From: an uncultured Acidobacteriota bacterium
Lineage (GTDB): Bacteria > Acidobacteriota > Blastocatellia > Pyrinomonadales > Pyrinomonadaceae
Reading direction: 5' to 3'
Assembly: GCA_946480545.1 (NCBI GenBank)
Contig: CAMLKY010000118.1
Location: forward strand, 1-6,577
DNA length: 6,577 bases
Positions 2,874 through 6,577 of this stretch are shown here, one piece after another. Position 1 is the first letter of the stretch, and the number at the start of each line of letters is the position of its first letter. A model generated the notes under the pieces. It searched no databases. It saw nothing but the letters and a program-made list of their open reading frames with translations, and was not told the DNA's origin. A program made the position numbers and the translations under genes.

Positions 2874-2903
2874 TTGAAGGATCGGTAAATGGCGTGTTAA
2901 ACT
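2874..2903 (+). promoter_or_regulatory. candidate promoter in front of the riboswitch
   Basis: TTGAAG (2874-2879) and TAAACT (2898-2903) are 18 bases apart. The -10 box is preceded by TG one base upstream (2895-2896), giving an extended -10. The predicted start near 2910 lies just ahead of the aptamer's first helix at 2924, which is where a riboswitch transcript would begin. This is a pattern match supported by position. Confidence 0.4.
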
Positions 2904-2920
2904 CTAATCGTTGAAAAGTT

Positions 2921-3057
2921 GATCACCGAAGTCATTCTTTGTTGAATGACGCGGGGGAACCAAACGTTTCGTCGTGCAATACGAAACAGGGGCGAAGAGC
3001 TTTGGCTCGGGGATAATCTTTCGTTCCTAGCCCGTCAGCTAACCTCGTAGGTGTGGC
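2921..3057 (+). ncRNA. cyclic-di-AMP riboswitch aptamer (ydaO/yuaA class)
   Basis: The conserved core of the ydaO/yuaA class is visible in order. The closing helix P1 pairs CACC (2924-2927) with GGTG (3050-3053). A perfect 7-bp hairpin follows (2931-2937 with 2944-2950), then GCGGGGGAACCA (2951-2962). Next is a perfect 7-bp hairpin (2966-2972 with 2981-2987), the GGGGCGAA block (2989-2996) and a small GAGC/GCTC hairpin (2997-3000 with 3005-3008). Last is the signature CCCGTCAGCTAACCTCGTAG (3031-3050), nearly identical to the end of the Bacillus subtilis ydaO element. In this class, cyclic-di-AMP binding usually turns off downstream genes for cell wall hydrolases or potassium and osmolyte transport. 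The element points rightward, but no plausible gene follows: a terminator-like hairpin and then the end of a convergent gene come next. An Infernal search with the Rfam ydaO-yuaA model would settle the identity. Confidence 0.92.
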
Positions 3058-3160
3058 AAAGAAGTTACTGCAGAAGTTTGACCTCTAAAGTCGCGATTTT
3101 GTGTGTGCTTCGCGCTCTGCTTTCTCAACACTCAAGCAGACATCCGGTCTTCTCAAAGAG
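3058..3160 (+). other. spacer between riboswitch and terminator hairpin, no convincing gene
   Basis: This roughly 100-base stretch should hold the riboswitch's expression platform or target, but it contains no ATG. A GTG at 3053, inside the 3' strand of P1, opens an 11-codon frame ending at TAA 3086-3088 (MAKKLLQKFDL). A 7-bp hairpin pairs 3116-3122 with 3134-3140 and has no U-tract. Neither is enough to call a gene or a terminator. Confidence 0.4.
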
Positions 3161-3192
3161 AAAAGCTCCGTATCATTTGGTACGGAGCTTTT
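3161..3192. terminator. bidirectional intrinsic terminator between convergent transcripts
   Basis: A perfect 12-bp inverted repeat (3161-3172 with 3181-3192) encloses an 8-base loop. The stem has a GC-rich middle (GCTCCG) with A-runs on one side and T-runs on the other. Read leftward, the stem is followed by TTTTCTCTTT, a good U-tract for ending the aminopeptidase transcript that stops at 3236. Read rightward, only four T's precede CGCGC, a weaker signal that could end the riboswitch transcript. Confidence 0.8.
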
Positions 3193-3235
3193 CGCGCTTG
3201 GACGATAGCTGGTCGATCCTTTGCGGCGTCACAGC

Positions 3236-4921
3236 TTATGGCGTGATATTGACTGTCTTAACTATGACCTTGTCAGCCGGATCGACATCGATCTTAGCGG
3301 GTTGATTCGGAAGCTTGATCGAAAAGGTCTCGAGTCGCTTGGTCACGTTGATCTTCTCGATCGTCTTCGTATCGCCCGTTATAAACTCGACTTCCAGCGG
3401 CAGACGGAATGCCGCCGGTGTTAGCTTGTCGGGCTTCTGGGTTTGTGTGACTGTAAGCCGCAACGTCCTGGTCGCCGCATTCCAGGAATGCGTGACATTC
3501 AGCTTTGGATGCCCGCCCATATAGACCCACTGTTCGAAGAACCAGTTCAGATCGCGTCCCGAAGCCTCTTCCATTGCCGCTCGCAGGTCCGTGCTTTCCA
3601 CATTCGCAAACTTGTGACGGTTGAGATAAATATTTACACCCTTCCAGAACGCGGCATCACCTATCTCTTCGCGGAGCATATGCAGCACCGCGCCGCCTTT
3701 GTTGTAGGTCGTCGCCGGTCGATCAAATAGCTCGGAGACTTTATCGGCGTTTTGATTGAAAAGTGCATTGCGGTTCCGGTTGACGGCGTCGTCGATTATG
3801 AAATACTGCGCGTCGCGACGGATCTTATTCATATAGCTGTCGCGCCCGTAGGCCTTCTCACGAAACACAGCTTCCATCAGCGTCGCGAATCCCTCGTTTA
3901 GCCAAAGCTCCGCCCAATTCTTGCAAGTAACAAGATTTCCGAACCAGGAATGCGCCAGCTCATGCGATACGAGATCGCCGACGCCCGCTTCAAAGAGCGG
4001 ATTTGTGATCGCGAGGATCTCAGTATCCGCCATCGTCGTCGCGGTGATGTTTTCCATCCCCCCGAACGTAAATCCTGCGACGATCGTCTGATCGTATTTC
4101 GCAAAAGGATAAGCCACTCCCGTTAGTGACTCGAACACCTTCATCATGTCCTTGGTGTTTCCAAATGCCTTCTGACCTATCGACTCGGTGCCGGGGTAAA
4201 CGAAAAACCCGAGCGGGATGTCGCGATACGAATCCGAAACACGGACGTACTGTCCAATGACAAACGAGACAAGGTAGGTCGGCGTCGGATCGTCCATTCG
4301 AAAATGATGGGTCACCGTACCGTCGGGGTTCGTAGTCTTCGTCACGAACTCGCCGTTACCGATCACCGTCTCGTCCGCTTTCGACGTGATGAATTGCTCG
4401 ATCGTCGCCTTGTCACTCGGGAAGTCGAACGACGGAAACCAGTGACGGGCCTCATCCGGCTCGCCCTGCGTCCAAATCTGCGGTCCATGGATCAGCTTGC
4501 CGTTCTCGATTTCCTCCGGGATGAAGTACACACCTTTCCGCGGAACCGAGGAATGTTTGAACGAGATCGTGATCGTATCCGAGGGAGAGTATGGCTTATC
4601 AAGCGTGACTACGATCTTGCCGTTCTGAACCCGGTACTTTAGCGTCGTACCGGCCGGTAGTAGTGTCACCGAGTTAAACGTGATCCCCACGGCATCGAAT
4701 TCCGCTGACGCGAAGCCTGGTTTGAGAGGCTTCAGTGTTACGGCAGTTTCGCCGAGGACCTTCTTCGCCTCTCGATCGAACGAAACGCGAAGTGAATAGT
4801 GCTGGGCGTCAAAGGTCTGCGGACGTGTAAAGTTCCGCCTCGCTGTTTGGGCAGAGGCGGAACTGGCAAGAGTCAGAAGTAGTGCGAAGCAGAATATCGC
4901 AACGATCGGGTTCAATCTCAT
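3236..4921 (-). CDS. secreted M1 family zinc aminopeptidase
   Basis: This gluzincin metallopeptidase probably removes N-terminal residues from peptides outside the cytoplasm. It is 561 residues long and begins with a signal peptide (residues 1-24, hydrophobic core IVAIFCFALLLTLA, likely cleavage after SASA). An N-terminal beta domain runs to about 225 and includes the M1-typical DEARHWFPSFDFPSDKATIE (156-175). The catalytic domain has the exopeptidase motif GGMEN (287-291), the zinc site HELAH (320-324) with the third ligand Glu343 in NEG exactly 18 residues on, and the catalytic Tyr406 in YNKGG. A beta-sandwich domain seems to fill about 472-561. The large helical C-terminal domain of classical aminopeptidase N is absent, which is usual for short bacterial members. 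ATG at 4921 is followed directly by the signal peptide. It starts three bases after the S9 peptidase stop, so the two are probably co-transcribed, with the 3161-3192 hairpin as terminator. Confidence 0.96.
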   Translation of the reverse strand: MRLNPIVAIFCFALLLTLASSASAQTARRNFTRPQTFDAQHYSLRVSFDREAKKVLGETAVTLKPLKPGFASAEFDAVGITFNSVTLLPAGTTLKYRVQNGKIVVTLDKPYSPSDTITISFKHSSVPRKGVYFIPEEIENGKLIHGPQIWTQGEPDEARHWFPSFDFPSDKATIEQFITSKADETVIGNGEFVTKTTNPDGTVTHHFRMDDPTPTYLVSFVIGQYVRVSDSYRDIPLGFFVYPGTESIGQKAFGNTKDMMKVFESLTGVAYPFAKYDQTIVAGFTFGGMENITATTMADTEILAITNPLFEAGVGDLVSHELAHSWFGNLVTCKNWAELWLNEGFATLMEAVFREKAYGRDSYMNKIRRDAQYFIIDDAVNRNRNALFNQNADKVSELFDRPATTYNKGGAVLHMLREEIGDAAFWKGVNIYLNRHKFANVESTDLRAAMEEASGRDLNWFFEQWVYMGGHPKLNVTHSWNAATRTLRLTVTQTQKPDKLTPAAFRLPLEVEFITGDTKTIEKINVTKRLETFSIKLPNQPAKIDVDPADKVIVKTVNITP

Positions 4922-4924
4922 AGC

Positions 4925-6577
4925 CTATTTTAGATGCTTGCTGAACCAATCGAGGACATTCTTATACCAGAATTCAGAATTTTGCGGTTTCAGGATCCAG
5001 TGGCCCTCATCCGGAAAAATGATGAGCTTTGACGGAACACCTTTTAGCTGAAGTGTCGTGAAGAGCTGCAGACTTTGATCGACAGGGACGCGAAAATCGA
5101 GCTCTCCCGCAGTGACCAAAGTCGGCGTTGCAAAGTTATTTGCAAACTTATGCGGCGACCAACGCTGGTACATGGTGGGATTCTGCCAGGGCATCCCCTT
5201 GAATTCCCAATTGACGAACCAGATCTCTTCGGTCGCCGTGGCCATTGATTCGAGGTTGTAAACTCCGGCGTGTGAAACGAGCGCCTTGAACTTGAATCGC
5301 GGATCGTTATTGTGGCCGAGTATCCAGTCGACCATATACCCGCCGTAGCTCGCTCCCGCCGCTCCGATGCGCGTGCGATCGATGTACGGACGCTTGATCA
5401 CTTCGGCGACGCCGTTCTTGAGATCGATAAACACCTTGCCGCCCCAGTCGCCCGAGATGTCGTTGATGAACTTCTGGCCATAGGTTGTAGAGCCGCGCGG
5501 GTTCGGCATAAATACCACGTACCCCGCATTCGCGAAGATCTGCGGATTCCATCGATAGCCCCAGTTGTCATTCCATGCCCCCTGCGGTCCGCCGTGGATC
5601 AGAACGATGAGCGGGTACTTTCGCGAAGGATCGAAATTGGCGGGTTTCACGATGAACCCGTGATTCGGCGTGTTCAAGGCTCCGCGCCAATCGATCTCCT
5701 CTGCTTTCTGCAGGCCGTATGCCCGGTACGCAGCATCGTTGAGCGTCGTCAGGGGGGCTACTCCACTCCCATCCGAGTTCACACGCATGATCTCCGTCGG
5801 GGAAGCGATCGTGCTCGATGCAAATACGATCGTGCGGCCGTCAGCAGAGATATTCAGACTGTTGGCGGCATGACCGGTAAGGACGGGTTTGACGTGGGTC
5901 GCGATGCGCAGTCGAAAATCCGGCTCGACCGGAACGCTATAGATCGGCGACCGCCCACGCGTCCCAGCCGCAAAATAGATCGTCCTACCGTCATCGGTGA
6001 CGACCATTTCATCGACCTGCTGATCGAATCCGCGCGTCAGCTCAACCGTCTCGCCGGTCTGGCGGTTGTATCGCATTATTCGCCAGCGGTCGGCTTCGAA
6101 CGTCGCGGTCTCCTGCGATCGATAAAGGATGTACTTCCCGTCGGGCGTGTACATCGGCGCGGCATCGTAACCCTTATTCGAGGCCGTGATGTTCTTCTGC
6201 GATTTATCGAACAGCGACGCGACGACGATATCGCTGTTTGTCGATGTCGCTTCGACCTTGTCGGGGTTCTTCAGGAATGCTATCTCTCGCGAGTCCGGTG
6301 AAAACGCGTAGTCGACACCGGATGATGCACCATACGGCGGTGCGTCGAAGTCGCCGGGCGTAAAGTCGGTCGCGATGCCGCCGTCGCTTGAGACGACGAA
6401 GACGTGTGTTCGCTTACGGTCGCGCCATTCATTCCAATGCTTAAAGAGAAGCCGTTCAGCGACTTTCGCCTGGACCTTGCTTGATTCGACCCCGGCGTCT
6501 TCGGCCTCGGCTACGCCGAGAACGGCTCGCTGCCCTCCCCCTACGGCAACCTCGAGAGCCAGGGCGGCCCGCTGTTC
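4925..6577 (-). CDS. S9 family serine peptidase (prolyl oligopeptidase/acylaminoacyl-peptidase type), partial at right edge
   Basis: The reading frame is open from the window edge to the TAG at 4925-4927 (550 codons), and the N-terminus lies outside. The upstream part has beta-propeller blades with repeated SPDSREIAFL, TPDGKYILY, TDDGRTIYFA and SADGRTIVFAS segments. The C-terminal alpha/beta-hydrolase has HGGP (5585-5596, oxyanion region), the nucleophile Ser of GASYGGYM (codon 5348-5350), Asp in AGELDFRVP (codon 5096-5098) and His in DEGHW (codon 5000-5002), so the triad is complete. The family cleaves short peptides at prolyl, acylated or other N-terminal sites, usually in the periplasm; location is not shown here because the N-terminus is missing. 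The ATG at 6154 is not the start, since propeller sequence continues upstream of it. Recognisable S9 sequence (SKVQAKVAERLLFKHWNEWRD) runs to about 6484; beyond about 6488 the translation no longer looks like S9. Confidence 0.93.
   Translation of the reverse strand, partial: EQRAALALEVAVGGGQRAVLGVAEAEDAGVESSKVQAKVAERLLFKHWNEWRDRKRTHVFVVSSDGGIATDFTPGDFDAPPYGASSGVDYAFSPDSREIAFLKNPDKVEATSTNSDIVVASLFDKSQKNITASNKGYDAAPMYTPDGKYILYRSQETATFEADRWRIMRYNRQTGETVELTRGFDQQVDEMVVTDDGRTIYFAAGTRGRSPIYSVPVEPDFRLRIATHVKPVLTGHAANSLNISADGRTIVFASSTIASPTEIMRVNSDGSGVAPLTTLNDAAYRAYGLQKAEEIDWRGALNTPNHGFIVKPANFDPSRKYPLIVLIHGGPQGAWNDNWGYRWNPQIFANAGYVVFMPNPRGSTTYGQKFINDISGDWGGKVFIDLKNGVAEVIKRPYIDRTRIGAAGASYGGYMVDWILGHNNDPRFKFKALVSHAGVYNLESMATATEEIWFVNWEFKGMPWQNPTMYQRWSPHKFANNFATPTLVTAGELDFRVPVDQSLQLFTTLQLKGVPSKLIIFPDEGHWILKPQNSEFWYKNVLDWFSKHLK
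6488..6577 (+). other. abrupt high-GC tail, probably foreign coding fragment
   Basis: From about 6488 to the window end, the + strand frame beginning GAC CCC GGC has G or C in the third position of all 30 codons, with roughly 70% GC at first and 50% at second positions. That is the pattern of a real gene in a very GC-rich genome, unlike the neighbouring genes. The frame reads through DPGVFGLGYAENG and GSLPSPYGNLESQGG; I do not recognise the family. The S9 gene on the other strand loses its expected sequence at the same point. A chimeric contig end is the simplest explanation; true recombination is possible. Confidence 0.55.

What the first reader, a model, noticed from the sequence alone, without database searches (positions are those of the whole stretch)
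2921..3235. Orphan cyclic-di-AMP riboswitch facing a convergent gene
The sequence shows an almost textbook ydaO/yuaA aptamer (CACC/GGTG closing helix, GCGGGGGAACCA, GGGGCGAA, CCGTCAGCTAAC) pointing rightward. These riboswitches normally sit just upstream of a cell wall or ion transport gene. Here only about 100 bases follow before a terminator-like hairpin, and then the 3' end of an aminopeptidase gene on the opposite strand. The conserved pairing in every helix argues against a decayed relic. It may therefore act without a coding target: as a ligand-sensing small RNA, as a switch controlling antisense transcription into the aminopeptidase 3' end, or as a 3'UTR element of the oxidase cluster. 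Alternatively the target gene was recently deleted.
Basis: partly seen in the sequence, partly recalled or inferred. Interest (0 to 1): 0.8.

Follow-up and report, generated by a model that had tools for sequence, protein, structure and literature searches.

The report
Stand-alone c-di-AMP-sensing regulatory small RNA
A bacterial RNA that contains a sensor for the signal molecule c-di-AMP is not attached to any gene; comparison across genomes indicates that it is a free-standing small RNA that pairs with the ribosome-binding sites of envelope lipoprotein messages.

Summary
In detail: window 2914-3068 matches Rfam RF00379 at 74.5 bits (cut-off 38), and no gene follows it. It is neither a relic nor a deletion. 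The same element (own promoter, 5' GUUGAAAA, aptamer, about 130-nt conserved noncoding tail, terminator hairpin) was found in 65 of 119 genomes of one acidobacterial order, with differing downstream genes and in two genomes at another locus. A near-invariant tail segment (CC[G/A]GUCUUCUCAAAG, 3144-3158) is complementary to an 18-nt motif, CTTTGANGAAGACNGGAG, overlapping the Shine-Dalgarno site of small Ala/Asn-rich lipoprotein genes. Over 62 genomes, all 33 distinct exact sites examined lie 7-14 nt before such a gene. Two genomes show matched seed/target changes; one (G023) goes the other way. Best reading: a c-di-AMP-sensing, trans-acting, base-pairing sRNA that blocks lipoprotein translation. 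Pairing is supported by comparison only. Ligand binding is inferred from the aptamer. How the ligand gates the seed is unresolved: my folding test found no coupling. No expression data were available.

The parts
2874..2903 (+). Promoter: -35 TTGAAG 2874-2879, 18-nt spacer, extended -10 TG 2895-2896 / TAAACT 2898-2903
   Evidence: Conserved pattern upstream of the RNA: TGnTAnnnT in 58 of 67 and a TTG (or CTGG) 17-19 nt upstream of the -10 in 63 of 67 sequences examined (columns for 31 sequences). The simple consensus scan did not flag it in the window.
2910..3193 (+). The small RNA, about 284 nt (5' end inferred from the -10 box, 3' end from the hairpin)
   Evidence: Conservation of the whole unit; no transcript was measured.
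2910..2917 (+). Segment A, GUUGAAAA, at the predicted 5' end
   Evidence: 31 of 31 (L013 needed its second match) and 66 of 67 in the alignment (L160 lacks it); sequences were anchored on it with up to one mismatch, so the count is partly selected. Complementary to loop B; mean A-B pairing probability 0.65 over 64 sequences, 0.09 in the window itself.
2914..3068 (+). c-di-AMP riboswitch aptamer (RF00379)
   Evidence: 74.5 bits, E 1.9e-16.
2924..2927 (+). P1 5' strand CACC (pairs with GGTG 3050-3053)
   Evidence: 97.5% of cells paired, one pair with a two-sided change.
3017..3021 (+). Segment D, loop UCUUU, half of the aptamer pseudoknot
   Evidence: UCUUUC with AAAGAAG in 40 and CUUCUUC with GAAGAAG in 22 of 67 sequences, 3 near forms, 2 other; the crystallised ydaO RNA has an equivalent loop and tail (construct sequence in PMC5393176, passages).
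3058..3064 (+). Segment C, AAAGAAG, aptamer 3' tail, other half of the pseudoknot
3092..3114 (+). Mid hairpin CGCGA/UCGCG, variable; sits where the terminator of canonical copies sits
   Evidence: Read by eye from the outputs; absent or degenerate in several relatives.
3116..3140 (+). Hairpin UCUGCUU/AAGCAGA presenting loop B (UUCUCAAC, 3122-3129)
   Evidence: Different stems around the kept loop in different clades (UCUGCUU/AAGCAGA, UUUGAUUU/AAAUCAAA); 82.9% of cells paired. Some relatives show only short or other stems.
3141..3158 (+). Segment E: seed CAUCCGGUCUUCUCAAAG, pairs with the Shine-Dalgarno region of lipoprotein mRNAs
   Evidence: Near-invariant; target motif; matched changes.
3160..3193 (+). 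Terminator hairpin (only UUUU at its 3' arm here; longer T runs in most relatives)
   Evidence: Hairpin directly after the seed in all 30 loci with complete 3' ends; a run of 4 or more T at its end in 28 of 30 (L011 interrupted, L014 none, and L012's run lies inside the stem); 9 of 12 pairs with two-sided changes.

Best explanation
The element is a gene for a free-standing small regulatory RNA that carries a c-di-AMP riboswitch aptamer as its sensor. It is transcribed from its own promoter and ends at its own terminator. Its seed (window 3141-3158) base-pairs in trans with the Shine-Dalgarno region of mRNAs for small, perhaps Lpp-like, lipoproteins, and so most likely blocks their translation. 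Supported by comparison: conservation of the unit, promoter and terminator patterns, intact aptamer, seed/target complementarity, matched changes in two genomes. Inferred: that the RNA is expressed, that it binds c-di-AMP, that pairing represses, and that the ligand gates the seed. On gating I commit, at low confidence (about 0.5), to the ligand-bound fold holding the 5' segment A in the A-B helix and so leaving the seed free, because A can otherwise pair with the seed (A-E probability 0.46 in the window's own fold, but only 0.06 on average over 64 sequences).
For: Aptamer far above cut-off, its pseudoknot kept in two sequence forms. Of 80 DUF420 loci, the 27 closest and three more carry it with the same tail. 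Promoter pattern in 58-63 of 67. Hairpin in 30 of 30 complete copies. Downstream gene convergent in 22 of 29 loci and varied. Tail-model hits in 65 of 119 genomes of the order. Another locus in G035/G036. c-di-AMP synthase domain in 14 of 14 genomes, Hfq in 15 of 16. Target motif: 33 of 33 distinct exact sites lie before lipoprotein starts; 50 hits at up to 1 mismatch against 5 of the reversed pattern in 62 genomes. Exact motif in 15 of 20 genomes with the RNA and 2 of 20 without (Fisher p 7e-5, not corrected for kinship). Matched changes: G008 seed GUCGUCUCAAAG with leader UUUUGAGACGACAGGAG, 18 contiguous pairs, -25.5 kcal/mol with its own seed vs -19.0 with the window-type seed; G025 seed GUCUUCUUAAAG with leader UUUUAAGAAGACAGGAG, -18.0 vs -13.9.
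Against: G023: its own seed pairs worse than the window-type seed (-15.7 vs -20.3); G116/G117 show no difference. No target found for G035/G036. The second lipoprotein leader of G005 is not complementary (-10.1). G048 and G069 have the target motif but no detected copy of the RNA, perhaps from draft incompleteness; G066 and G070 have the RNA but no motif at up to 1 mismatch. Against a gene-start background the duplex energies are good but not unique: 3 of 36 beat all 300 background sites. The folding test shows no C-E switch and no change of seed accessibility when C and D are held unpaired. G116 has no Hfq hit. No transcription data. The window's own genome is not held, so its own target could not be read.
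Confidence: 0.8

Rival explanations
1. A riboswitch-controlled attenuator that makes an sRNA: c-di-AMP terminates transcription at the mid hairpin (3092-3114), giving a short RNA without seed; low c-di-AMP gives the full RNA with seed, which represses the lipoproteins.
For: Canonical copies in the same genomes have aptamer, then terminator, then gene, and the mid hairpin sits at that place with a similar loop; a c-di-AMP riboswitch is described as triggering termination on ligand (PMC9337991, passages). The scan flags a terminator-like site at 3101-3115, where 0.7 sites are expected by chance for the region.
Against: The mid hairpin is missing or changed in several relatives (for example L007, L021, L154), and its U-run is displaced from the stem.
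Confidence: 0.3
2. A trans-acting sRNA whose aptamer no longer gates activity, or a ligand-binding RNA that mainly buffers c-di-AMP.
For: No gating seen in the folding ensemble.
Against: The aptamer is kept at 67-77 bits in the orphan copies of genomes G001-G012, and its pseudoknot is kept in two sequence forms, which argues for kept ligand binding.
Confidence: 0.1
3. A 3'UTR element or antisense regulator of neighbouring genes (oxidase cluster or M1 peptidase).
For: Mostly kept between DUF420 and the M1 peptidase (18 of 29 loci).
Against: Own promoter pattern and hairpin, varied downstream genes, another locus in two genomes.
Confidence: 0.05
4. Decayed leader whose target gene was deleted, or a misassembly.
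For: No adjacent co-directional gene in the window.
Against: Same arrangement in dozens of assemblies, with covarying helices.
Confidence: 0.01

Closest known systems
c-di-AMP (ydaO/yuaA) riboswitch, RF00379
   Same: Aptamer sequence, P1, loop-tail pseudoknot, score above cut-off.
   Different: Not a leader of a gene: own promoter pattern, 130-nt conserved tail and terminator hairpin; the canonical copies read in the same order are compact and precede genes.
SreA of Listeria (SAM riboswitch product acting in trans)
   Same: A riboswitch RNA that binds a distant mRNA 5'UTR (PMC8383071, passages).
   Different: SreA is the terminated leader of a gene; here no gene follows, and a separate seed domain follows the aptamer.
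Rli55 (Listeria) and EutX (Enterococcus)
   Same: Ligand-sensing RNA with an effect in trans (PMC8383071, passages).
   Different: They answer to vitamin B12 forms and sequester the protein EutV; here c-di-AMP and mRNA pairing.
MicL sRNA of E. coli, which represses lpp
   Same: An sRNA of similar length (308 nt before processing) that inhibits translation of a small envelope lipoprotein (PMC12137417, passages).
   Different: MicL is described there as part of the sigma-E response, with no ligand sensor; the targets here have no significant family match to Lpp (best NCBIfam hit E 0.55).

Membership tests
c-di-AMP riboswitch aptamer (RF00379) | Covariance-model score over the curated cut-off | tested here: met
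   74.5 vs 38 bits
c-di-AMP riboswitch aptamer (RF00379) | Loop-tail pseudoknot as in the solved ydaO RNA | tested here: met
   Complementary in two sequence forms, 62 of 67, plus 3 near forms; 2 do not fit. Construct sequence in PMC5393176 (passages)
c-di-AMP riboswitch aptamer (RF00379) | Binds c-di-AMP | not testable with these tools
   needs in-line probing
cis-acting riboswitch | Leads a co-directional gene with an expression platform | tested here: not met
   Next gene convergent in 22 of 29 loci, co-directional in 7 but after the terminator hairpin
trans-acting base-pairing sRNA | Own promoter and intrinsic terminator | tested here: met
   Sequence patterns only; transcript not measured
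trans-acting base-pairing sRNA | Conserved seed complementary to conserved mRNA sites | tested here: met
trans-acting base-pairing sRNA | Compensatory seed/target changes between species | tested here: inconclusive
   Better own-seed pairing for one G008 leader (-25.5 vs -19.0) and G025 (-18.0 vs -13.9), slight for the other G008 leader, neutral in G116/G117, worse in G023
trans-acting base-pairing sRNA | Regulation of the target demonstrated | not testable with these tools
   needs a reporter
Lpp/Braun lipoprotein (for the targets) | Family-model match over cut-off | tested here: not met
   NCBIfam Ala-zipper lipoprotein 10.8 bits vs 43, E 0.55, for one of three fragments; no Pfam Lpp match
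Lpp/Braun lipoprotein (for the targets) | Lipobox and C-terminal Lys | tested here: inconclusive
   Lipobox-like N termini by a loose pattern; 29 of 57 collected proteins end in K

The most novel reading that the evidence does not exclude
A dedicated second-messenger-sensing sRNA (a riboswitch that works in trans): c-di-AMP, the turgor and cell-wall signal, directly sets the activity of an sRNA gene that controls a set of small envelope lipoproteins across an order of Acidobacteriota, without any cis gene and without a protein sensor.
Probability: 0.6. Interest if true: 0.92.

Novelty: new variant of a known kind. Interest (0 to 1): 0.86.

Why it matters
Riboswitches are read as cis elements, and the trans cases I found are few (SreA, Rli55, EutX). 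Here a c-di-AMP aptamer appears to have become the sensor of a free base-pairing sRNA with a named and testable set of targets. That would link c-di-AMP to envelope lipoprotein levels by RNA alone in an abundant, little-studied soil phylum. It also gives a rule for re-reading 'orphan' riboswitch hits: look for a promoter, a terminator and a seed. My paper searches (open-licence PMC only, listings seen, passages of a few papers read) listed no c-di-AMP-sensing sRNA; that does not show that none is in print.

Tried and rejected
Ligand gating by pairing of the aptamer tail (C) with the seed (E): the tail-only consensus fold suggested it, but full-length ensembles of 64 sequences give C-E probability 0.00 and no accessibility change when C and D are held open; dropped as a claim. 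A first version of that test gave identical values, probably because the constraint was not applied; one search replaces it.

A tandem with the Na+ riboswitch (known for some c-di-AMP riboswitches): no other Rfam family in the window at E<=1. A small protein in the tail: the ORF there (3051-3305) has no Pfam match, and the tails carry indels of varied length. Viral origin: no relative of the DUF420 protein in viral contigs.

Exact 12-nt seed complements in 12 genomes gave 23 places, 13 of them outside the RNA gene. Only one (G005, L189) lay at a ribosome-binding site; most others are inside genes. The target family was found by following that one, so the discovery was selected; the later pattern counts are the test, though the pattern itself was drawn from leaders of 18 of these genomes. 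For one search I gave 20 of the 65 genomes with a tail-model match and 20 of the 54 without.

Rows dropped: L060 and L069 (chance motif matches, set aside by eye); L009 (contig ends before the seed) from then on; L161 and L166 without a core; near-duplicates removed (97 to 67). L109/L170 and L116/L015 remained as near-duplicates, and L109 and L116 were mis-anchored (seen). One non-lipoprotein ORF (G009) stayed among the 36 leaders. The 33 leaders of the column count were picked by a pattern for the 3' part of the motif. One search missed a co-directional gene in L022; one search replaces its neighbour counts. In one search four tandem loci were read at their sibling's site; re-read each site. 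Tail-model hits G228 and G270 (weak, partial) and the second hit in G026 were not followed as members.

Full report
What was checked. The window is a piece with a ResB-like gene, CyoE (UbiA family), COX3, DUF420, then the aptamer, then convergent M1 and S9 peptidases. The named DUF420 relatives are from Pyrinomonadaceae bacteria (Acidobacteriota). The Rfam scan confirms the c-di-AMP aptamer at 2914-3068 with 74.5 bits against a cut-off of 38.

It is conserved as a gene-less unit. A scan of species genomes with a DUF420 alignment returned the best 80 loci. In 30 of the 80 (all of L001-L027, and L030, L037, L043) the aptamer core lies in the same place downstream of DUF420, followed by the same tail (two further motif matches, L060 and L069, were chance). 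The tail is noncoding in look (indels of varied length) but has near-invariant blocks. A hairpin follows directly in all 30 with a complete 3' end, window included; 28 of these 30 have at least four Ts in a row at its end. In 29 loci with a readable neighbour the next gene is convergent in 22 (18 of them the M1 peptidase) and co-directional in 7 (correcting). A covariance model of the tail alone (R1) matches 65 of 119 genomes of the order, one copy each apart from a weak second hit in one, and 25 of 396 genomes drawn from the phylum, of which 23 belong to the first set and two are weak partial hits. In two divergent genomes the RNA sits elsewhere, with no DUF420 beside it (L159, L160).

Its anatomy. 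Upstream lies a conserved sigma-70-like promoter pattern with extended -10: TGnTAnnnT in 58 of 67 sequences, and TTG (or CTGG) at a 17-19 nt spacing in 63 of 67. The predicted start falls on segment A, GUUGAAAA, present in 66 of 67 sequences (sequences were anchored on it with up to one mismatch). A is complementary to loop B (UUUUCAAC type, 65 of 67 by a permissive pattern); mean A-B pairing probability is 0.65 in 64 sequences but 0.09 in the window. L160 lacks both A and B; L159 has A and only a short UCAAC in the tail. The aptamer pseudoknot is kept in two sequence forms (40 and 22 of 67) and corresponds to the solved ydaO RNA (construct sequence in PMC5393176, passages read). A pair count on 30 aligned sequences for a structure I named gives 90.9% of cells paired and 23 of 46 pairs with two-sided changes, above all 500 shuffles and all slid versions; the structure was drawn from the window, which favours it. 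The A-B helix shows no two-sided change there and so has no covariation support.

Canonical copies differ. Genomes G001-G012 have one to three RF00379 hits. In five of these twelve the orphan is the only hit, with draft incompleteness as a caveat. The other copies that I read have the aptamer, a terminator within about 80 nt, and then a gene; the proteins look like potassium or amino-acid transporters and FAD oxidoreductases, by recall from their sequence, not by a family scan.

The targets. The tail block before the terminator, CC[G/A]GUCUUCUCAAAG, was used as a seed. An exact complement at a ribosome-binding site in G005 led to small lipoprotein genes, often in tandem, whose leaders carry forms of CTTTGAAGAAGACAGGAG before the start codon. 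As a test, the pattern CTTTGANGAAGACNGGAG with at most one mismatch was sought in 22 and then 40 genomes: 50 hits in all, against 5 for the reversed pattern. Re-reading the 49 loci fetched gives 33 distinct exact sites, all 33 lying 7-14 nt before a small lipoprotein start; of 16 one-mismatch hits, 4 do. Exact hits occur in 15 of 20 genomes with the RNA and in 2 of 20 without (G048, G069; no orphan was found there with RF00379 either). In the first 22 genomes, exact hits occur in 10 of 16 with the RNA and 0 of 6 without. In 33 leaders picked by the 3' part of the motif, the unselected CTTTG part is kept in 29-32 of 33 per column; further upstream, columns are A/T-rich and mostly less conserved, though a few reach 27-28.

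Matched changes. G008 has the unusual seed GUCGUCUCAAAG; one of its lipoprotein leaders reads UUUUGAGACGACAGGAG, giving 18 contiguous pairs (-25.5 kcal/mol, against -19.0 with the window-type seed). G025 has GUCUUCUUAAAG and a leader UUUUAAGAAGACAGGAG (-18.0 against -13.9). The second G008 leader is near neutral (-21.2 against -20.3), G116 and G117 are neutral, and G023 is against (-15.7 against -20.3). Two matched cases, one contrary. Duplex energies of 36 leaders have a median of -20.2, against background means of -10.5 to -14.2; 13 of 36 rank within the best 3 of 300 background sites and 3 beat all.

The target proteins collected are 76-142 aa with lipobox-like N termini and Ala/Asn/Ser/Thr-rich, often heptad-like bodies; 29 of 57 end in Lys. 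Family scans of three fragments gave no significant Lpp match. 'Lpp-like' is therefore an impression.

Context. The c-di-AMP synthase domain is present in 14 of 14 genomes tested and Hfq in 15 of 16.

Mechanism. Supported by comparison: a separate RNA gene with sensor and seed, and base pairing with lipoprotein Shine-Dalgarno regions. Inferred: expression, ligand binding, repression, gating. The folding ensemble gives no support for a direct tail-seed switch. In the window's own fold segment A pairs with the seed at 0.46 and with B at 0.09, which suggests an A-B versus A-E choice, but the mean A-E value over 64 sequences is only 0.06; attenuation at the mid hairpin is the main rival.

Known relatives. 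Riboswitch RNAs that act in trans are known: SreA by binding an mRNA 5'UTR, Rli55 and EutX by protein sequestration (PMC8383071, passages). MicL represses lpp in E. coli (PMC12137417, passages). Seven paper searches listed no c-di-AMP-sensing sRNA among the rows shown; the library lacks most subscription papers.

I left the odds as they were, since none of these facts carries the main claim alone.

Noticed in passing
L189 1100-2000 (G005): The leader of the G005 lipoprotein has a second, weaker seed-like site (GTTTGAGAAGAAAC) about 40 nt upstream of the first.
   Followed up: no
L081, L097, L098, L100, L104, L303-L319: Canonical c-di-AMP riboswitches in the same order precede genes that look like transporters and oxidoreductases, with compact terminator platforms.
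   Followed up: partly
L159, L160 (G035, G036): The RNA sits at another locus with a diverged seed (UCUUCUCUAAA), and no target was found; L160 lacks both A and B.
   Followed up: partly
G048, G069: Target motif present before lipoprotein genes but no orphan RNA detected: incomplete drafts, or a second regulator.
   Followed up: partly
window 6470-6577: The N-terminal end of the S9 peptidase reading frame at the window edge reads oddly (Ala/Val-rich); possibly a frameshift or a contig-end error.
   Followed up: no
L179 (G008:C32:10185): An exact consensus-seed complement CTTTGAGAAGAC about 270 nt from the matched lipoprotein site on the same contig of G008.
   Followed up: no
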